DNA from: Prochlorococcus sp. MIT 1223
GTDB lineage: Bacteria; Cyanobacteriota; Cyanobacteriia; PCC-6307; Cyanobiaceae
Reading direction: 5' to 3'
Assembly (NCBI RefSeq): GCF_034092465.1
Contig: NZ_CP139303.1
Location: 1,454,865 to 1,518,864 of the forward strand
Length of the DNA stretch: 64,000 nucleotides
Below the pieces are notes generated by a model. The model was given only the letters and a program-made list of their open reading frames with translations, had not been told where the DNA came from and ran no database searches. Positions 28,107-61,065 of the stretch are shown here, in pieces (the first letter of the stretch is position 1; every line of letters starts with the position of its first letter). The position numbers and the translations under genes are program-made.

Positions 28107-28895
28107 TTATAACCATTCTTTTGCCTCAGTGATAATTTCTGAAATGTTTAAGATAACTTTATCTGCTCCTGCTTTTTTGAGATTTTCTTCGTAAATAGAC
28201 CTTTCTTTTATTGTCCCTTTTTTGTGAAGATGAGGAGGACTTATAGCAAAGCTTATAAATTTTTGACTTGGAACTTTTAATTGAGCATTCTTAATTGTTA
28301 ATACATCAGCAACTGTGTCTCCTAGATATATAACTGGAGGTACACCATCCCCTAACTCAGTACCCGCCAATTCTTGTGCGATTTTAATTAAGCCAGTTGG
28401 ATCAGGTTTGTCGGGAGCATCTTCCATGGCGATTAAATATGGTTGTTTTATCTTCAGTCGAGTTTCTAAGACATACTTTGCTGAAATAGATTCAGCTCCA
28501 CTGACGAATCCCCATGACAAATTTAGCTTTGTAAGAGTATCAAAAAACTCTTTGTTAACTAGTAATTGTTCATTTTGGATAAAACCATCCCATTGTTCTG
28601 GATTGCTATTGGGATTATTTCCAAAGTAGTACGTATTAAAAACTTTTATCAAACTTTTAATACTTGGAATTTCCAGAAATTTGCGCTGTTTTTTGTTATG
28701 ACGATTTATTAATTCTAAAGATGCATGCCAGTCATTATTCCATTTCCCTTCTGCTTTGAGGTTGTCTATATCATTGATTGAAGGCTTCCAATTGCAAAAA
28801 TGAATTACGGTCTCTTGGATTGCAAGACGGTAACTTTTGGAGACATCACGAATAACTCCATCGATGTCAAAAAGTAGGAATCCAATTGGGTTCAA
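28107..28895 (-). CDS. HAD-superfamily hydrolase, subfamily IA
   Basis: 262 residues. Motif I is LLFDIDGVIRDV at the N-terminus; the acidic motif IV is in YLGDTVADVL. A cap domain of about 120 residues lies between. The family is a cyanobacterial type of unknown substrate. It is convergent with pepP and divergent from the PSRP-3 gene. Confidence 0.8.
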   Translation of the reverse strand: MNPIGFLLFDIDGVIRDVSKSYRLAIQETVIHFCNWKPSINDIDNLKAEGKWNNDWHASLELINRHNKKQRKFLEIPSIKSLIKVFNTYYFGNNPNSNPEQWDGFIQNEQLLVNKEFFDTLTKLNLSWGFVSGAESISAKYVLETRLKIKQPYLIAMEDAPDKPDPTGLIKIAQELAGTELGDGVPPVIYLGDTVADVLTIKNAQLKVPSQKFISFAISPPHLHKKGTIKERSIYEENLKKAGADKVILNISEIITEAKEWL

Positions 28896-28961
28896 TGAAT
28901 TTGATGCATTTATGGTCTGATGACTGGTAGGTTAGTTGCTTGTTAGTTAGTTGAAGACTAA

Positions 28962-29468
<507 letters not shown>

Positions 29469-29518
29469 TGGCTTTAGGTCATATGAGGTAAATATATTTT
29501 TTCTAATTGAAGCTAAAA

Positions 29519-29926
29519 TTACTGATCTTTTGTTGCTTGGAATCTTGCTCTTGCTCGGTTTAGAGATTCTTGGGCCTGTAACTTTTCAGGAGAATTTGGT
29601 TCCCCTTCTAATTGATTAAATTTATTTTTTGCTTCTTCTAAGTCGGCTTCTGCATTAGTTGAATTAATTGAAGAGCCTAGTTCAGCTCCATTTACAAGCA
29701 CCGTAACTTCATTAGATTCAACTTCTGCAAATCCACCCATAAGAGCAATTGAATCCCACTTCCCTTTGTTTAAGACTCTAAGTACACCAGTATCGATGGC
29801 TGTAACCATTGATATGTGGCCGGGCAATATGCCCAGTAATCCAGTTGTGCTTGGGAGAATTATTTCTTCGGCATTCCCATCAAATACGCTCTTGTCTGGT
29901 GCAAGCACTCGTAGTGTTAGAGACAT
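29519..29926 (-). CDS. atpC: ATP synthase F1 subunit epsilon
   Basis: 135-residue rotor subunit (AtpE in cyanobacterial naming) that couples gamma to the c-ring and can inhibit ATP hydrolysis. The beta-sandwich N-terminal domain (SLTLRVLAPDKSVFDG, LPSTTGLLGILPGH) and the C-terminal helices are both present. It follows the beta gene after 80 bp, the usual separate beta-epsilon locus of cyanobacteria. Confidence 0.95.
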   Translation of the reverse strand: MSLTLRVLAPDKSVFDGNAEEIILPSTTGLLGILPGHISMVTAIDTGVLRVLNKGKWDSIALMGGFAEVESNEVTVLVNGAELGSSINSTNAEADLEEAKNKFNQLEGEPNSPEKLQAQESLNRARARFQATKDQ

Positions 29927-30006
29927 TTTGAGAGTCTTTAGGTGAGTTAATTAATTTGAATCAGAGCCCTTTATATAGAGCTCCGATTAGTTTGTAGAAG
30001 TTTTTT

Positions 30007-31467
<1,461 letters not shown>

Positions 31468-53562: not shown

Positions 53563-55272
53563 ATGCCTTTCAAAATCTCACGTCAAGCTTATGCCGAGAC
53601 TTATGGCCCTACAAAAGGTGATCGTATTAGACTTGCTGATACAGACTTGATTCTCGAAGTTGAACAAGATCATACTCACTATGGAGACGAAGTTAAATTT
53701 GGTGGAGGCAAAGTTATTCGTGATGGGATGGGACAATCACAACAAACTAGAGATAATGGAGTTGTAGATACAGTTATTACCAATGCACTTATTCTTGATT
53801 GGTGGGGAATTGTTAAAGCTGATATTGGTATTAAAGACGGAAAAATTTCAGGTATCGGAAAAGCTGGGAATCCAGATACTCAAGAAGGTGTCAATATTAT
53901 TGTAGGAGCTAGTACAGAAGCAATAGCAGGAGAAGGAAATATTATTACTGCAGGAGCTATTGATAGTCATATTCATTTTATTTGTCCACAACAAATAGAA
54001 ACTGCTTTAGCTAGTGGGGTTACCACAATGCTCGGAGGAGGGACAGGTCCAGCAACAGGCACCAATGCAACGACATGTACACCAGGAGCATTTCATATCT
54101 CAAGAATGCTGCAATCAGCGGAGGGATTTCCTGTTAATTTGGGATTTTTTGGAAAAGGTAATGCAACGAATAAATCAGCATTAGAAGAACAAGTGAGAGC
54201 GGGTGCTTGTGGATTAAAGCTTCATGAGGACTGGGGAACGACACCGGCTTGTATTGATTCTTGCCTAAGTGTTGCGGATCAGTTAGATGTTCAAGTTTGT
54301 ATTCATACAGATACTTTAAATGAGGCTGGTTTTGTTGAAGATACGATTCGGGCAATAAAAGGAAGAACAATTCATACCTTCCATACAGAAGGAGCTGGAG
54401 GTGGTCATGCTCCTGACATTATCAAGATTTGTGGAGAATCTAATGTTATTCCAAGTAGTACAAATCCGACTAGACCTTTCACTCTAAATACTCTTGAAGA
54501 GCATTTAGATATGTTGATGGTTTGCCATCACTTGGATCCCAAAATTCCTGAGGATGTTGCATTTGCAGAGTCCAGAATACGTAGAGAGACTATTGCTGCT
54601 GAGGACATACTCCACGATTTAGGAGCTTTTTCTATTATTGCTAGTGACTCTCAAGCTATGGGAAGAGTTGGAGAAGTTATTAGTAGAACTTTTCAAACTG
54701 CTCATAAAATGAAAGTTCAAAGAGGTGCTTTACCAGAAGATAATGGCAGAAATGATAATCATCGTATTAAAAGGTACATCTCAAAGGTGACCGTTAACCC
54801 TGCAATAGCGCATGGAATTAGTAGTCATGTTGGTTCTGTTGAAGTTGGAAAACTTGCTGACTTAGTACTTTGGAAACCAGGCTTTTTCGGAATAAAACCA
54901 GATTTGGTAATTAAAGGGGGATCTATTGTATGGGCACAAATGGGCGATGCTAATGCCTCAATACCAACACCTCAACCTGTACATGGCCGACCAATGTTTT
55001 CAGCATTTGGGAAAGCTATAAATTCTAGTTGCCTCACTTTCTTAAGTGAAACTGCTATCAATGCAGGTGTACCAGAACAACTTAAATTAGAACGATCTTA
55101 TGCTGCTGTGAAAAACACAAGAGAGATATCCAAACAATCAATGAAACTCAATAATGCAAGGCCAAAAATAGAAGTTGACCCTCAAACTTATGAAGTTTTT
55201 GCAAATGGTGAACTTTTAACTTGTGAACCAGCTGAATCTTTACCTCTTGCACAGAGATATCTATTACTTTAA
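53563..55272 (+). CDS. ureC: Urease catalytic subunit alpha
   Basis: 569 residues. Nickel ligands are visible in [11 protein letters not shown] (two His), the carbamylated lysine in [12 protein letters not shown], histidines in CIHTDTLNE and [14 protein letters not shown], and the aspartate in ASDSQAMGR. The mobile flap cysteine and histidine are in LMVCHHLD. All active-site residues look intact. Confidence 0.98.
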
Positions 55273-55582
55273 TTGTTAATAGAAAAAATATTCAAAGATT
55301 CTTTTTAAAATCACTATTTTGTTCTATCGACCTTTCTCTTGCATTTTTAAAAGCATTGTGAGTAGTCGTCTTTGATGAATAAGGATAATTCCTAAAATAA
55401 AGAGAAATAAGTAAGAGAAAGTTTGGGTAAAGTTTGGGTAAATTTCTATGTTTCGCTGAGAACGTAGTCTTAGCTTGAAATGAGTGTTTTCATTAGCCAG
55501 TAGTTAATTTCTTTAGACATGTTTGTATCAGAGGGATATCGTGAAAATTAAGAAGTTTGAACAGAGTTTGAACAGACTCCTT
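55273..55582. other. Gene-free stretch holding repeat R5
   Basis: 310 bp between ureC and the exported mini-protein. Its right half is repeat R5; the left 150 bp show no ORF, terminator or operator that I can support. Confidence 0.5.
55421..55576 (-). repeat. EVE 5'-end repeat R5
   Basis: The most divergent copy, with word pairs on both sides: GTTTGGGTAAA twice at 55421-55442 and GTTTGAACAGA twice at 55555-55576. Core CATTAGCCAGTAGTTA at 55491-55506. The minus strand reads MSKEINYWLMKTLISS then stop. The spacer sequence differs from all others but keeps the 48-bp length. Confidence 0.87.
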
Positions 55583-55774: not shown

Positions 55775-55852
55775 AGCCCAATAGTTTTTTAATTACTATA
55801 AATATAGTTAAATCGCTAGATTCATTAGCCCACAGATATTTGGCTCGCTCTC

Positions 55853-55965
55853 CATTAGCCAGTAGTTAATTTCAGTCATAGTCTGTAATCTTAGCGATAC
55901 TTGATGGTTGGAATGGAGTTGGAATGAAACCTCATTCTTCCATCTCTTTTCTTTACTCTATCTAA
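55853..55965 (-). repeat. EVE 5'-end repeat R6
   Basis: Core CATTAGCCAGTAGTTA at 55853-55868; the minus strand reads MTEINYWLMESEPNICGLMN then LAI and stop. Word pair GTTGGAATGGA/GTTGGAATGAA at 55907-55928 and a pyrimidine tract follow. About 105 bp are nearly identical to R7. No left word pair is recognisable. Confidence 0.85.
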
Positions 55966-56066: not shown

Positions 56067-56085
56067 AATAATGATAATCATTTTA
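56067..56085. promoter_or_regulatory. Fur/Zur-like operator upstream of the CobW-like gene
   Basis: AATAATGATAATCATTTTA closely matches the GATAAT-repeat boxes bound by Fur-family regulators. Zinc is favoured over iron because the downstream genes encode a CobW-like protein and, in the next cassette, a zinc-independent bL36. Confidence 0.65.
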
Positions 56086-56126: not shown

Positions 56127-56906
56127 ATGGGGCAGGCTTGGTTAATTTCAGGATCGCCAGGATGCGGGAAAACTCATTGGATTCTTAATACGTTTAAGAA
56201 TCACAAAGGTTCTTGTGCCTATATTCGTCTAAATGGATATTCAGATATTGATTTAGAACAAGTAAAATTTTCAAAAATTGACTCTGCTTTTCTAAAAGAC
56301 CATCTTCCACATTTAATAGATGTATCCAACTCAAATAAATCATCCATTTCAATTAGAGAGAATACTCTTCTATTGATCGAACTTCCGCAGTTCAAGCTTC
56401 CTAGCCAAAATGGAGTTTCGGGAATAGATCCACGTGTATTACATGAGCTTGAAATATTAAAACTACAACCAAATAGATATCTTCATTTTGGTCGTGATAT
56501 TGAATTGCCAACAAAAGACACACTAGATTTTAAAAAAATTGAATCCAGCAACTTAAATCTTCAAGGATGTATCTGGGATCCTCCTAGTCTCAATACTTTT
56601 TGGTTTGAACTAGTCAATGGAGCTTATGGAGATGTCTACAGAGCAAAAGCATTAATGAACTTGCCTGATGGACGATGTATGTTTTTCAATTGGATTGTTA
56701 GCCAACAAGGATCTCAATATCTACCATTAAATGGAGTTGCTCCCCTCACTGGGAGACCCGAACGACATTCTGAAATTGTTATTCAGGGAAAGAATCTTGA
56801 CTTTGCCTTAATTCAATCGACAATCAATCATTGTCTTCTGGATGACTCAGTTCTGGCATACCATCAAGCTTCTCTTAGAAGTTCAGAACTACAACCTATA
56901 GGTTAA
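56127..56906 (+). CDS. CobW-like (COG0523-related) P-loop protein
   Basis: 259 residues. Walker A GSPGCGKTHW is at residues 8-17. The C-terminal part (YRAKALMNLPDGRCMFFNWI) resembles the CobW C-terminal domain. The canonical GCxCC metal-binding motif of COG0523 GTPases is missing and the G domain is shortened. COG0523 proteins move or insert metals under zinc limitation. Likely first gene of a three-gene operon with the two phosphoesterase-like genes (10-bp gap). Confidence 0.72.
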   Translation: MGQAWLISGSPGCGKTHWILNTFKNHKGSCAYIRLNGYSDIDLEQVKFSKIDSAFLKDHLPHLIDVSNSNKSSISIRENTLLLIELPQFKLPSQNGVSGIDPRVLHELEILKLQPNRYLHFGRDIELPTKDTLDFKKIESSNLNLQGCIWDPPSLNTFWFELVNGAYGDVYRAKALMNLPDGRCMFFNWIVSQQGSQYLPLNGVAPLTGRPERHSEIVIQGKNLDFALIQSTINHCLLDDSVLAYHQASLRSSELQPIG

Positions 56907-56916
56907 AAATAGATCT

Positions 56917-57735
56917 ATGAATCAAGCTGTTATTTCATGTTTACATGCAAATCTCCCAGCATTAGAGGCTGTCTTGAATGACATTGAATATCTTGGGATT
57001 CAAAATATCACCTGCCTAGGAGATCTGGTTGGATATGGCCCCCAACCCAACGAAGTTGTTGAGTTAATTAGAGAAAAAGGTATTCAAACGTGTCAAGGTT
57101 GTTGGGATGAAGATATCATTGACGGATTAGATGCTTGTGATTGTAGTTATCCATCCCAGCTTGCGGAGAAGCGTGGTCATTTTGCACATCAATGGACTAC
57201 AGATAAATTAACTAACGAAAATAAAGAGTTCCTAGCAAGTCTTCCTACGTCAATACGAAAAGATAAATGTCTTTTTGTTCATGGCAGTCCTAATAGTCAA
57301 CATGAGTATCTCCTCCCTGATATGGATGCATTCGCAGCTCTAGAAAGAGTTGAAATGTCTGGAGCAGAAACATTGTTTTGTGGCCATACCCATCAGCCAT
57401 ATATTCGTGAGTTGACAAATGGCTCAATTTCTTTTCGTATACAAAATGCCTCATCTAAAGGTATTCAAGAACAACAAGGAATGGATTTACCAATGAGAAG
57501 AATAGTTAATGCAGGCTCAGTTGGTGAGCCTAGGCATGGGGGCATTAAAGCTACGTATGTGGTTTATAACGACAATACCTGTGAAGTAGAAATTAGAGAA
57601 GTTTCATATGATATTGAACGTACATGTAAGTCAATCATAGACTCAGGTCTCCCTCCTATTTTTGCATGGCGTTTAATAAATGGCTTTGAATTTGCGGAAC
57701 AAGCTGAAGATGCCAGCCACGTTTGTGAAAGATGA
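56917..57735 (+). CDS. Metallophosphoesterase with cysteine-substituted metal sites
   Basis: 272 residues of the calcineurin-like fold. Expected motifs occur in order but two metal ligands are changed: ISCLHANLPALEAVL (usually SD-H), GDLVGYGP (normal), QGCWDED (usually GN-D), VHGSP and CGHTHQP (normal). Cysteines replace Asp and Asn, so zinc- or iron-thiolate binding is possible. It overlaps the following gene by 4 bp. Confidence 0.82.
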   Translation: MNQAVISCLHANLPALEAVLNDIEYLGIQNITCLGDLVGYGPQPNEVVELIREKGIQTCQGCWDEDIIDGLDACDCSYPSQLAEKRGHFAHQWTTDKLTNENKEFLASLPTSIRKDKCLFVHGSPNSQHEYLLPDMDAFAALERVEMSGAETLFCGHTHQPYIRELTNGSISFRIQNASSKGIQEQQGMDLPMRRIVNAGSVGEPRHGGIKATYVVYNDNTCEVEIREVSYDIERTCKSIIDSGLPPIFAWRLINGFEFAEQAEDASHVCER

Positions 57736-58445
57736 TAGAACGTTGGGCACTTGTAAGTGGTCTCAAGGGAGACCTTGAAACTTATGAACTTATTCAAAGA
57801 GATTTAAGGAAGATTCCAGGGGATAAAGCTTTATTTGTCTTAGGAGATATGATTGGTCCAGATAGAAATTGTAATCGACTTTTAAATAGGTTAATAAATC
57901 CTATTAGTAGTGATTTAAAACCTCAATGTATATATGGTTGGTGGGAAGAGCAATTACTTGCGGAAAGTGGTTATCGTGGAAATCAAAAAGCTGAAGCTTT
58001 AAGAATTAACGGAGGGGAACAAGTTGTTAACTCGCTTTTGAGTGCGGTCGATCAAGCATATCTCAGTTGGTTGGCATCACTTGAATTTGGATTTGTTGAA
58101 CTTGATTGTGGATTGATTCATGGTAGTTCAAGAGATGTAGGTGATGAGTTATCAATGACTACTCCCCCCTTAACATTTCTTGATAGACTTACCCGTCTGA
58201 ATGTGAATAGATTATTTACTGCAAGAAGTACTCATCAATTTTATTGGGAATTAACAGAGGCAATTGTTGAATCAGATGTAATGGATTTAAGTGGAAATCG
58301 TAAGCAGCAGCAGAAAATTCCCAAAAAAATAGTAATCGGAATTGGTGCCGGAAAAAATTACACTCTTTATGATGTAGGGAGTGATAATACTCAATTTTTA
58401 CAAGCAGGGTATCAATCTAAAAAAGGAGTTAAAGGCTTTGCTTGA
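57732..58445 (+). CDS. Degenerate metallophosphoesterase paralogue
   Basis: 237 residues. The fold can be traced (VSGLKGDLETYELI, VLGDMIGPDRN, GLIHGSS, ARSTHQFYWE), but most metal ligands of motifs I, III and V are gone; only the GD of motif II and one histidine remain. It looks like a pseudoenzyme partner of the preceding protein, coupled by a 4-bp overlap. Confidence 0.65.
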   Translation: MIERWALVSGLKGDLETYELIQRDLRKIPGDKALFVLGDMIGPDRNCNRLLNRLINPISSDLKPQCIYGWWEEQLLAESGYRGNQKAEALRINGGEQVVNSLLSAVDQAYLSWLASLEFGFVELDCGLIHGSSRDVGDELSMTTPPLTFLDRLTRLNVNRLFTARSTHQFYWELTEAIVESDVMDLSGNRKQQQKIPKKIVIGIGAGKNYTLYDVGSDNTQFLQAGYQSKKGVKGFA

Positions 58446-58455
58446 TCTTTATAAG

Positions 58456-58625
58456 GTTCGAATAGATTTTGATCAAAAGCTGAAATCCATTGTTATCAAA
58501 GCAGGCTCACACTTCATAAGCCAGTAGTTAATTTCAGTCATAGTCTGTAATCTTAGCGATACTCGATGGTTGGAATGGAGTTGGAATGAAACCTCATTCT
58601 TCCATCTCTTTTCTTTACTCTATTC
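58456..58625 (-). repeat. EVE 5'-end repeat R7
   Basis: Starts 10 bp after the stop of the second phosphoesterase-like gene. Only the second left word survives (GTTCGAATAGA at 58456, 59 bp before the core, in register with the other copies). Core CATAAGCCAGTAGTTA at 58515-58530; the minus strand reads MTEINYWLMKCEPALIT. Right pair at 58569-58590. Confidence 0.85.
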
Positions 58626-58687: not shown

Positions 58688-58706
58688 AAAAATGATAATC
58701 ATTCCT
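58688..58706. promoter_or_regulatory. Fur/Zur-like operator upstream of the DsrE-like gene
   Basis: AAAAATGATAATCATTCCT shares the core ATGATAATCATT with the box at 56067-56085. It ends 13 bp before the ATG at 58720, a position suited to repression. Confidence 0.65.
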
Positions 58707-58719
58707 ATTTTAAGCAACC

Positions 58720-59097
58720 ATGAAAGTAGCCTATGTCTTTCGATCTGACATGGCCTCAACTTTTCAGTTGGCCACGATGATTCTTCCTCAACTAGAAGGT
58801 GGATTTCACGGAGTTGAAGTAGTTGGAATGTTCTTCTTCGATGACAATACTTGCTGTATGAGAAAGGGAGATCCAATTGGCGAACGTGTTTCAAAGATTG
58901 CGAAGGAAAAAGGAATGTTGCTAATGCTTTGTGATCAATGTGCTGTGAGAAGAAATCTAGCCGAAGGAACTTTTGAGCAATGTGGGACAGGAGAAGTTGA
59001 GCCAAAAGATACAGTAGAGGGGGTTCAAGTAGGTTGCTTCCCGCAGTTATATAAAGCGTTAAGTGGAAATATGCCTGACCAAGTAATAACTTTATAA
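58720..59097 (+). CDS. Cysteine-rich DsrE/DsrF-like protein
   Basis: 125 residues. An N-terminal beta-alpha segment (MKVAYVFRSDMASTFQLA) and overall length suit the DsrE-like fold. It holds six cysteines in TCCMRKG, MLCDQCAVRR, EQCGTGE and VGCFPQLY, suggesting thiol chemistry or metal binding. Preceded by a Zur-like box, so a role in zinc shortage is inferred. Exact family assignment is uncertain. Confidence 0.6.
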   Translation: MKVAYVFRSDMASTFQLATMILPQLEGGFHGVEVVGMFFFDDNTCCMRKGDPIGERVSKIAKEKGMLLMLCDQCAVRRNLAEGTFEQCGTGEVEPKDTVEGVQVGCFPQLYKALSGNMPDQVITL

Positions 59098-59805: not shown

Positions 59806-61065
59806 TTAATTAACACATCCAGAGTTCTTTAGTGAAGGAAGCTGAAGGCTGCTCAACCATGAGCAGAGGATAAATAAGCTGGAACACCACAAACAAATCT
59901 GCATGCCTAAATAAGGAGTATCTCCCAGTACAAACAAAACTCCTGAAAGAAGCGTCCCAAGAAGCCTGCCTGCCGCATTTGCCATGTAATAGAAGCCAAC
60001 GTTGAGGCTTACATTCTCAACATCTGTATAAGCCAAAACCATGAATGAATGGATAGAAGAATTCATTGCGAAAACTATTCCGAACGCAATTAAACCAGCA
60101 GTAATGGCAATGCTTGGATCATTCTGTCTCCATAATGCAATGGCTATTAGTCCAGGTATCCCCATCAGCAAAGCACTCCAGAACTGAACCGTTGAAACTC
60201 CTGGGCTCGACTTCTTCCCCCAAAGATTTCTTAAAGTTGGGACCAATGCTTGTACAAAACCGTAGCCAATAATCCATAGGCCTAGGAAAGCTCCAATCTC
60301 AGAGAAGTTCCAATTAAGTGATGTCTCGAGGAAAACAGGTAATGCGACTACGAACCACACATCTCTAGCTCCGAAGAGAAAGAAACGTGCAGTCGAGAGA
60401 GTGTTAATTCCTTTTGATTTTGAGAAAAGGTCCTTAAATATTGGTTTTTCCTTCATCCGTCCAATATCACCCGGCAAGATCAATGTCATAAGAAATGACA
60501 ACGCCAAGCCAATCGCCATTACCCCAACCGCTTTATTAAAACCAAAGCCAGTTAGTAATGCTCCACCTAGGAAAAACCCAACACCCTTTAGTGCATTCTT
60601 TGATCCTGTTAAAACAGCAACCCATTTGAACAACTTCCTTTTCCCTTTTTGTTCTTCTTCAGGGGTTTCAGGTACGACTGTTTTGATAGCACTCTTTGCA
60701 CTCATTTTGTTGAGGTCTTTAGCAATACCACTAATTGCTTGCGCAACCATGACATAACTAACGCTTAGAAATTTCGGCCAACTTGCAGCAACAGGAACCA
60801 GCATCAAAAGAGCACTGATTTGAAGAAGTGTGCCTGCCCAGAGAGTTAGTCGTAGGCCATATCGAGCACCAATCCAGCCGCCATAGAGATTAGTAATGAC
60901 CCCAAAGAACTCATAAAACAAAAAAAGAAATGCAATCTCTAAAGCTGTATAGCCAAGTTGATGAAAATGAAAAACCACCAACATGCGAAGTGCGCCATCT
61001 GTCAGAGTGAACGCCCAATAATTTGTAGTAACGATCCCGTATTGCTGAAGAGATGATAATTTCAT
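59806..61065 (-). CDS. arsJ: ArsJ-type major facilitator efflux protein
   Basis: 419 residues with about 12 hydrophobic helices. The segments NYWAFTLTDGALRMLVV, FLFYEFFGVITNLYGGW and QAISGIAKDLNKMSAKS match what I remember of ArsJ. ArsJ exports 1-arseno-3-phosphoglycerate made by a partner GAPDH. No GAPDH gene lies beside it here, so it must use the housekeeping enzyme or a distant copy. It fills its own cassette between R8 and R9. Confidence 0.85.
   Translation of the reverse strand: MKLSSLQQYGIVTTNYWAFTLTDGALRMLVVFHFHQLGYTALEIAFLFLFYEFFGVITNLYGGWIGARYGLRLTLWAGTLLQISALLMLVPVAASWPKFLSVSYVMVAQAISGIAKDLNKMSAKSAIKTVVPETPEEEQKGKRKLFKWVAVLTGSKNALKGVGFFLGGALLTGFGFNKAVGVMAIGLALSFLMTLILPGDIGRMKEKPIFKDLFSKSKGINTLSTARFFLFGARDVWFVVALPVFLETSLNWNFSEIGAFLGLWIIGYGFVQALVPTLRNLWGKKSSPGVSTVQFWSALLMGIPGLIAIALWRQNDPSIAITAGLIAFGIVFAMNSSIHSFMVLAYTDVENVSLNVGFYYMANAAGRLLGTLLSGVLFVLGDTPYLGMQICLWCSSLFILCSWLSSLQLPSLKNSGCVN

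What the first reader, a model, noticed from the sequence alone, without database searches (positions are those of the whole stretch)
56917..58445. Phosphoesterase pair with cysteine-swapped ligands and a pseudoenzyme partner
In the first protein the motif I Asp and the motif III Asn are both Cys (SCLHAN, GCWDED) while the histidine motifs are intact. The overlapping second protein has lost most ligands. Two thiolates would change metal preference toward zinc or iron, and the pair may act as a heterodimer metal sensor or buffer rather than a phosphatase.
Basis: partly seen in the sequence, partly recalled or inferred. Interest (0 to 1): 0.58.

Follow-up and report, generated by a model that had tools for sequence, protein, structure and literature searches.

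The report
Zinc-starvation phosphoesterase with cysteine metal site
Cyanobacteria, from ocean Prochlorococcus to freshwater species, share a three-gene set that looks switched on when zinc is scarce, and its central protein is a phosphatase relative in which two of the normal metal-gripping residues are always cysteine, which suggests it handles metal or does redox chemistry rather than ordinary phosphate cleavage.

Summary
The 272-aa protein (B, 56917-57735) is a calcineurin-like phosphoesterase with Cys at the motif I Asp (C8) and motif III Asn (C62); the other five metal ligands are intact. The overlapping protein (C, 57732-58445) keeps two of seven. The cysteines are not noise: all 170 cyanobacterial sequences inspected have both (including 20 held-out). 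(1) An invariant C74-x-C76 at the position where Car1, a phosphoesterase that became an arsenate reductase, has its two essential redox cysteines. The nearest non-cyanobacterial relatives lie in ars operons and keep C-x-C with canonical Asp/Asn, so C8/C62 look like a cyanobacterial addition. (2) A conserved upstream gene A, a P-loop protein with a CobW_C-like tail. (3) Zur-type boxes upstream of A, and zinc-starvation genes (folE, hemB, thrS, hisI, znuABC) around the cassette in other cyanobacteria. Published data show the gene matching A is Zur-repressed in PCC 7002, where I find B deleted. Best reading: a zinc-starvation cassette built on a thiolate-ligated, redox-capable phosphoesterase. 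Metal, substrate and the B-C complex are untested. New variant of a known kind.

The parts
56070..56082 (.). AATGATAATCATT, Zur/Fur-type palindrome 44 nt before the A start codon
   Evidence: Exact AATGATWATCATT occurs at four sites in the 1.80 Mb genome: here, before the SaoD-like gene, at the start of a znuA, and one inside a coding region; a TGAKAATNATTMTCA-type box precedes A in 24 of 44 and 13 of 25 loci and 11 of 19 held-out loci
56127..56906 (+). A: 259-aa P-loop protein with CobW_C-like C-terminal region
   Evidence: Pfam CobW_C 20.6 bits in the window (cut-off 22), 25.6 bits in relative L109; Walker A GSPGCGKT in the window, conserved; A beside B in 39 of 40 class-wide loci and 19 of 20 held-out loci
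56917..57735 (+). B: Cys-substituted calcineurin-like phosphoesterase
   Evidence: Pfam Metallophos_2 70.8 bits; 3rqz relative; invariant residues in 51 representatives
56938..56940 (+). codon of C8 (motif I Asp position)
57100..57102 (+). codon of C62 (motif III Asn position)
57136..57144 (+). codons of C74-D-C76, the C-x-C pair at Car1 numbering
   Evidence: invariant in 51 of 51 and 20 of 20; Car1 Cys74/Cys76 stated essential in PMC12124457 (passages)
57732..58445 (+). C: degenerate phosphoesterase partner, 4-nt overlap with B
   Evidence: B queries find C of relatives at up to E 4e-28; ligand positions G/x/D/W/H/R/x; B-C distance -4 in 90 and -7 in 12 of 102 picocyanobacterial loci counted
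58691..58703 (.). second exact AATGATAATCATT box, upstream of the SaoD/DsrE-family gene
58720..59097 (+). SaoD/DsrE-family protein with the same box; possible member of the same regulon
   Evidence: NF040913 210.7 bits, cut-off 152

Best explanation
A-B-C is a cassette of the cyanobacterial zinc-starvation (Zur) regulon. B is a calcineurin-like phosphoesterase of the kind that, in ars operons, carries a redox C-x-C loop (Car1 type). In the cyanobacterial lineage two ligands of its dinuclear site, the motif I Asp and motif III Asn, became Cys, giving a predicted Cys2-His4-Asp site next to a C74-x-C76 dithiol. Most likely working: when zinc falls, Zur lets go, A-B-C are made, B holds zinc or another soft or borderline metal (Zn2+, Fe2+, Co2+) at the thiolate site, the dithiol makes ligand exchange redox-dependent, the P-loop protein A drives loading or release, and dead homologue C acts as a structural partner. 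Shown here: conservation, ligand pattern, gene order, box, neighbourhoods. Taken from print: Zur repression of the gene matching A in PCC 7002, and the role of Cys74/Cys76 in Car1. Inferred: metal identity, chaperone-like role, A-B-C complex.
For: Conservation: C8, H10, D36, C62, C74, C76, H122, H157, H159 plus H91, H129, C155, H207, C237, C270 invariant in 51 of 51 class-wide representatives; all 16 positions checked hold in 20 of 20 held-out genomes except C237 in one. Spread: 151 of 388 class genomes, 75 of 156 genera. Box: at least 12 of 14 matches within 300 bp before A in 24 of 44 and 13 of 25 loci against shuffle fractions 0.006 and 0.004, beside 8 of 30 ZnuA-family loci and 0 of 15 flavodoxin loci; 11 of 19 held-out. 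Neighbours in 40 loci: folE paralog 16, His-rich COG0523 GTPase 16, FAD-dependent oxidoreductase 13, hemB 10, thrS 9, znuC-like 9, znuA, znuB and hisI 6 each; annotated records agree. Print: PCC 7002 G0131 up in the zur mutant and under TPEN (PMC4628125, passages); by order G0131 is a truncated A and B is missing there. Cys74/Cys76 essential in Car1 (PMC12124457, passages); C-x-C with Asp/Asn in ars-operon relatives.
Against: No metal, activity or interaction data. The B model has mean pLDDT 69 with residues 63-82 (the C-x-C loop) under 50, so closeness of C74/C76 to the metal site is inferred from Car1, not seen. Boxes are missing before A in 20 of 44, 12 of 25 and 8 of 19 loci; at least one of these lies downstream of co-directional zinc genes (L144). 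The box consensus was set after seeing part of the data; only one search is independent. The Zur regulon of Synechococcus WH8102 as described lists no phosphoesterase (PMC9337993, passages); whether WH8102 has the cassette was not tested. Near-total conservation of the active-site shell suggests catalysis as much as metal carriage.
Confidence: 0.5

Rival explanations
1. B is a Car1-like oxyanion (arsenate-type) reductase whose metal site was retuned so that it works without competing for zinc; it was placed under Zur because it is needed, or spares zinc, in low-zinc cells.
For: C74-x-C76 at the numbers reported essential in Car1; ars-operon context of the nearest non-cyanobacterial relatives: eight annotated plasmid records; ArsJ within about 5 kb of B in 14 of 80 picocyanobacterial loci and 2.1 kb from B in this genome.
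Against: Car1-type relatives keep Asp and Asn; B never does. ArsJ is close (10 kb or less) in only 4 of 18 genomes with both on one contig, and is present with or without B (24 of 25 vs 16 of 20), so proximity looks like a shared island. In other cyanobacteria the neighbours are zinc genes, not ars genes.
Confidence: 0.2
2. B is a hydrolase (for example of dinucleoside polyphosphates, as its structural relative SapH) that uses a non-zinc or very tightly held metal, a low-zinc enzyme by analogy with HemB2, FolE2 and ThrRS2.
For: All four His ligands and D36 intact; fold closest to 3rqz and to the Ap4A hydrolase SapH; zinc-economy paralogs are the usual company.
Against: Only one match to B in this genome, so no partner enzyme to replace; loss of the motif III Asn, held important for phosphate-ester chemistry in this superfamily (recalled), and an invariant C-x-C not needed for hydrolysis.
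Confidence: 0.2
3. B-C is a heterodimeric metal sensor or buffer.
For: 4-nt overlap and near-constant pairing; C has lost most ligands; thiolates could bind zinc.
Against: No DNA-binding or signalling domain found; on the box evidence Zur already senses zinc for this cassette. A near-invariant enzyme-like pocket is more than a buffer needs. B-C are not always adjacent outside picocyanobacteria (gaps over 900 nt in 3 of 41 loci).
Confidence: 0.08
4. The cysteines are sequence error or strain-specific drift.
For: None found.
Against: 170 of 170 sequences hold both.
Confidence: 0.01

Closest known systems
Car1, arsenate reductase of Rufibacter tibetensis (a metallophosphoesterase; Shen et al. 2024, not held; seen through passages of PMC12124457) and its ars-operon relatives
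   Same: Phosphoesterase fold, C-x-C at 74/76, tandem phosphoesterase genes in some ars operons (Pedobacter, Mucilaginibacter)
   Different: Relatives have canonical Asp/Asn in the dinuclear site and ars company; no CobW-like neighbour seen in the stretches fetched. Car1's own sequence was not compared.
Metallophosphoesterase 3rqz (Sphaerobacter thermophilus) and SapH Ap4A hydrolase 3qfm
   Same: Fold and His motifs; 3rqz 112 bits with a B profile, Z 20.3
   Different: 3rqz has Asp and Asn where B has C8 and C62, and its aligned stretch lacks the C-x-C
COG0523 / CobW GTPases of Zur regulons
   Same: A has a Walker A and a CobW_C-like tail; same genomic company
   Different: A is about 260 aa and lacks the CxCC and NKxD motifs (motif names recalled; absence read)
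Cyanobacterial Zur regulon (Anabaena PCC 7120, Synechococcus PCC 7002)
   Same: Box type, znuABC, hemB, folE, thrS, COG0523 company
   Different: I found no description of the Cys phosphoesterase or its partner in the passages read

Membership tests
Calcineurin-like metallophosphoesterase (catalytic) | Fold / family profile | tested here: met
   Metallophos_2 70.8 bits vs cut-off 27; Z 20.3 to 3rqz
Calcineurin-like metallophosphoesterase (catalytic) | Motif I Asp and motif III Asn metal ligands | tested here: not met
   Cys at both in 170 of 170
Calcineurin-like metallophosphoesterase (catalytic) | Bridging Asp of motif II and His ligands | tested here: met
   D36, H10, H122, H157, H159 invariant
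Calcineurin-like metallophosphoesterase (catalytic) | Metal-dependent phosphoester hydrolysis | not testable with these tools
   needs protein
Car1-type arsenate reductase | Cys74 and Cys76 | tested here: met
Car1-type arsenate reductase | Canonical Asp/Asn dinuclear site, as in the ars-operon relatives | tested here: not met
Car1-type arsenate reductase | Sequence relationship to Car1 itself | not tested
   Car1 sequence not at hand; ars-operon relatives about 34-36% identical
Car1-type arsenate reductase | As(V) reduction | not testable with these tools
   needs protein
Zur regulon member | Zur-type operator at the promoter | tested here: met
   absent in a large minority of loci
Zur regulon member | Zinc/Zur-dependent expression | not testable with these tools
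   Reported for PCC 7002 G0131, matched to truncated A by gene order; not for B or for this strain
COG0523/G3E GTPase (protein A) | Walker A | tested here: met
COG0523/G3E GTPase (protein A) | CxCC and NKxD motifs | tested here: not met
   read
COG0523/G3E GTPase (protein A) | CobW_C domain | tested here: inconclusive
   20.6 bits vs 22 in the window; over the cut-off in 1 of 4 relatives scanned; fold model too weak (pTM 0.47; no hit at E 0.001)
Pseudoenzyme (protein C) | Homology to B with loss of most metal ligands | tested here: met

The most novel reading that the evidence does not exclude
A redox phosphoesterase of the arsenate-reductase kind was turned, once, at the base of the cyanobacterial family, into a zinc-thiolate protein: a C-x-C dithiol gates a Cys2-His4-Asp dinuclear site, and with a dead homologue and a CobW-like P-loop protein it forms a redox-controlled zinc capture and delivery machine used when zinc runs out.
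Probability: 0.28. Interest if true: 0.78.

Novelty: new variant of a known kind. Interest (0 to 1): 0.6.

Why it matters
How zinc-starved cells move their last zinc to the right proteins is open, above all for ocean picocyanobacteria that live at very low zinc. This cassette is present in about two fifths of the sampled cyanobacterial genomes, looks wired to zinc starvation, and has a metal site of a type I found no report of in the searches made. If it carries metal it would be a new class of intracellular zinc-handling protein; if it is a redox enzyme it would show that the phosphoesterase fold can trade hard ligands for thiolates. Both are testable with one purified protein and a knock-out.

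Tried and rejected
Strain-specific noise: rejected (170 of 170). Iron (Fur) control: considered because the box resembles a Fur box; set aside because the same box sits at znuA and not at 15 flavodoxin loci, but Fur cross-talk is not excluded. Arsenic function inferred from ArsJ beside the cassette: weakened by genome-wide distances and by ArsJ being present with or without B. The apparent counter-evidence that PCC 7002 'phosphoesterase' G0129 does not respond to Zur was set aside because that ORF is a remnant of C, G0130 is an unrelated insert, and B is gone.

Led nowhere: PHROGs scan, solved-structure profile searches for A and C, fold of A (pTM 0.47), Rfam at the cassette (no match; one 5_ureB_sRNA match upstream), viral homologues (one distant phage protein), tRNA scan (none). 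Ten literature searches, restricted to the open library, listed no paper that I could recognise as describing a Cys-substituted cyanobacterial phosphoesterase; Napolitano 2012 and Shen 2024 were not held, so an earlier description there or elsewhere is not excluded.

Rows dropped or short: C sequences of L016, L110 and L124 had internal stops and were left out; L074 gave no C, L115 and L135 gave no C; L113 has no A and is missing from the box count (44 of 45). Neighbour families were named by reading the sequences; searches confirm folE, hemB, thrS, hisI, znu and precorrin-8X methylmutase by annotation. The 271 of 386 mixes in ordinary phosphoesterases and is not used as a prevalence. Of the 68 plasmid records, six are cyanobacterial; of the other 62 I opened 13, two of them without annotation. 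Nine of the 11 annotated ones lie beside ars genes (one only beside arsA, and without C-x-C); Haloplanus and Rhodobacter do not. The ars link is thus for the closest ones, not for all.

Full report
WHAT IS THERE. The window lies in a 1.80 Mb single-contig genome nearly identical at this locus to Prochlorococcus sp. AG-409-D09 (B 99.6% identical). A modest AlphaFold2 model (pLDDT 69, pTM 0.75) matches 3rqz at VIA-align Z 20.3 and the Ap4A hydrolase SapH at 19.1 (Foldseek). C has no Pfam match but B queries find the C proteins of relatives.

THE TWO CYSTEINES. Aligned with 3rqz and with plasmid-borne relatives, C8 takes the place of the motif I Asp and C62 that of the motif III Asn; H10, D36, H122, H157 and H159 are unchanged. 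The 170 include the window's own genome and some strains present twice. In 51 class-wide representatives C74, C76, H91, H129, C155, H207, C237 and C270 are also invariant; one held-out sequence has Ser at 237. The family is present in 151 of 388 sampled class genomes, 75 of 156 genera.

PROTEIN C. At the seven ligand positions C has Gly, a variable residue, Asp36, Trp (Ala or Leu in single cases), His122, Arg and a variable residue in all 13 sequences aligned. It is therefore very unlikely to bind two metals in the usual way. Its own invariant residues are few (16 of 237 columns in 47 sequences). In picocyanobacteria the B-C distance is -4 nt in 90 and -7 nt in 12 of 102 loci counted; in other families it is a gap, usually short, over 900 nt in 3 of 41.

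PROTEIN A. A keeps a Walker A motif and a C-terminal stretch that resembles CobW_C: 20.6 bits in the window against a cut-off of 22, 25.6 bits in one of four relatives scanned. It lacks CxCC and NKxD (recalled as COG0523 hallmarks; absence read). Its model is too poor to settle the fold (pTM 0.47; no Foldseek match at E 0.001). A accompanies B in 39 of 40 class-wide loci and 19 of 20 held-out loci, the exception being cut off by the contig end.

WHERE B COMES FROM. Outside cyanobacteria, the nearest plasmid-borne relatives (about 34-36% identical) sit in arsenic operons: Rubrobacter (two records), Pedobacter, Adhaeribacter, Paraclostridium, Hymenobacter, Mucilaginibacter and Pontibacter. Those have Asp at 8 and Asn at 62 and, except for the second gene of the two tandem pairs, a C-x-C at 74/76; the more distant relatives examined lack the C-x-C. 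A paper whose passages I read (PMC12124457) reports that a Paraclostridium ars-operon phosphoesterase is about 40% identical to Car1, an arsenate reductase of Rufibacter tibetensis, and carries the Cys74 and Cys76 essential to its reductase activity. The Car1 paper itself was not held. So the C-x-C is shared with a redox phosphoesterase, whereas C8 and C62 were seen only in cyanobacteria, in a limited outside sample (13 of 62 non-cyanobacterial plasmid records opened). A 44-row tree separates B, the ars group with its distant relatives, and C; it is rooted only at the midpoint, so a single origin of C-x-C is parsimonious rather than proven.

ZINC. The exact palindrome AATGATWATCATT occurs at four places in this genome: 44 nt before A, before the neighbouring SaoD/DsrE-family gene, at the start of a znuA gene, and once inside a coding region. 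Across cyanobacteria a TGAKAATNATTMTCA-type box (at least 12 of 14 positions) lies within 300 bp before A in 24 of 44 and 13 of 25 loci; the same score is reached by 0.6% and 0.4% of dinucleotide shuffles, by 8 of 30 ZnuA-family loci, and by 0 of 15 flavodoxin loci, which served as iron-type controls. The consensus was drawn after a first look; the independent held-out set gives 11 of 19. Within about 6 kb of B in 40 loci I find folE (16), a His-rich COG0523 GTPase (16), an FAD-dependent oxidoreductase (13), hemB (10), thrS (9), a znuC-like ATPase (9), and znuA, znuB and hisI (6 each). Annotated plasmids of Picosynechococcus PCC 7117, Trichormus variabilis and Dolichospermum show the same company by name. 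This is the zinc-starvation regulon known from Anabaena and PCC 7002 (PMC6103462 and PMC4628125, passages).

A LITERATURE PUZZLE EXPLAINED. Ludwig et al. 2015 (PMC4628125, passages) report in PCC 7002 that hemB-II, folE-II, G0131 and G0132 rise in a zur mutant and under TPEN, while 'phosphoesterase' G0129 and G0130 between them do not. The pAQ7 record shows why: the cassette is a ruin there. The three ORFs between folE and the FAD gene are the last part of C, an unrelated insert, and the first 147 residues of A with a foreign tail; B is absent. Matching by order, G0131 is the truncated A, so the promoter upstream of A is Zur-repressed in that strain, and the silence of G0129/G0130 says nothing about B.

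ARSENIC. ArsJ lies near B in this window and within about 5 kb in 14 of 80 picocyanobacterial loci, in varying orientation. But ArsJ is present in 24 of 25 B-bearing and 16 of 20 B-lacking genomes tested, and within 10 kb of B in only 4 of 18 genomes with both on one contig. I read this as a shared gene island rather than a functional tie.

HOW IT MOST LIKELY WORKS. When zinc falls, Zur releases the promoter and A, B and C are made. B offers a dinuclear site with one thiolate per metal; thiolates favour Zn2+, Fe2+ or Co2+ (established coordination chemistry). The C-x-C, essential for arsenate reduction in Car1, could here exchange ligands with the metals or serve another substrate. A would supply nucleotide-driven switching and C a scaffold. 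The regulatory placement is well supported; thiolate ligation is a sound inference; the zinc-handling role is a choice among rivals, chiefly an oxyanion reductase and a low-zinc hydrolase. The C-x-C loop of the model is below pLDDT 50, so the geometry is not shown.

VERDICT. It is filed as a new variant of a known kind. It is not filed as a catalytic metallophosphoesterase or as Car1, since defining ligands of both were tested and not met.

Noticed in passing
window 55842-55961 and 58504-58623; third copy at G000:C1:1519707-1519815: A 120-nt direct repeat (96% identical) flanks the A-B-C cassette; a third copy lies just beyond the window end and short pieces lie at 55481, 59722 and G000:C1:1518927. 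All matches found in the genome lie in this 9 kb stretch, which suggests a modular gene island built by recombination between repeats.
   Followed up: partly
window 58720-59097: SaoD/DsrE-family protein (NF040913, 210.7 bits) with its own exact AATGATAATCATT box; it may belong to the same zinc regulon, although no copy was found within the 80 picocyanobacterial loci held.
   Followed up: partly
window 59806-61065: ArsJ organoarsenical efflux transporter (570 bits) on the opposite strand, 2.1 kb from B.
   Followed up: yes
G000:C1:1230284-1230313 (L173): Two adjacent one-mismatch copies of the box between an AztA-like zinc ABC ATPase (170 bits, under the cut-off of 220) and a small ORF: likely another zinc-regulated promoter.
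   Followed up: partly
L245 (NC_010474) 28717-30488: In Picosynechococcus PCC 7002 plasmid pAQ7 the cassette is broken: B is lost, A and C are truncated around an unrelated ORF, while close relative PCC 7117 is intact.
   Followed up: yes
window 53718-54004: Rfam 5_ureB_sRNA match (79.9 bits) on the minus strand inside the ORF at 53563-55272, which reads as the urease alpha subunit.
   Followed up: no
L113 (G184:C1): In this genome znuA sits directly upstream of B where A usually is.
   Followed up: no
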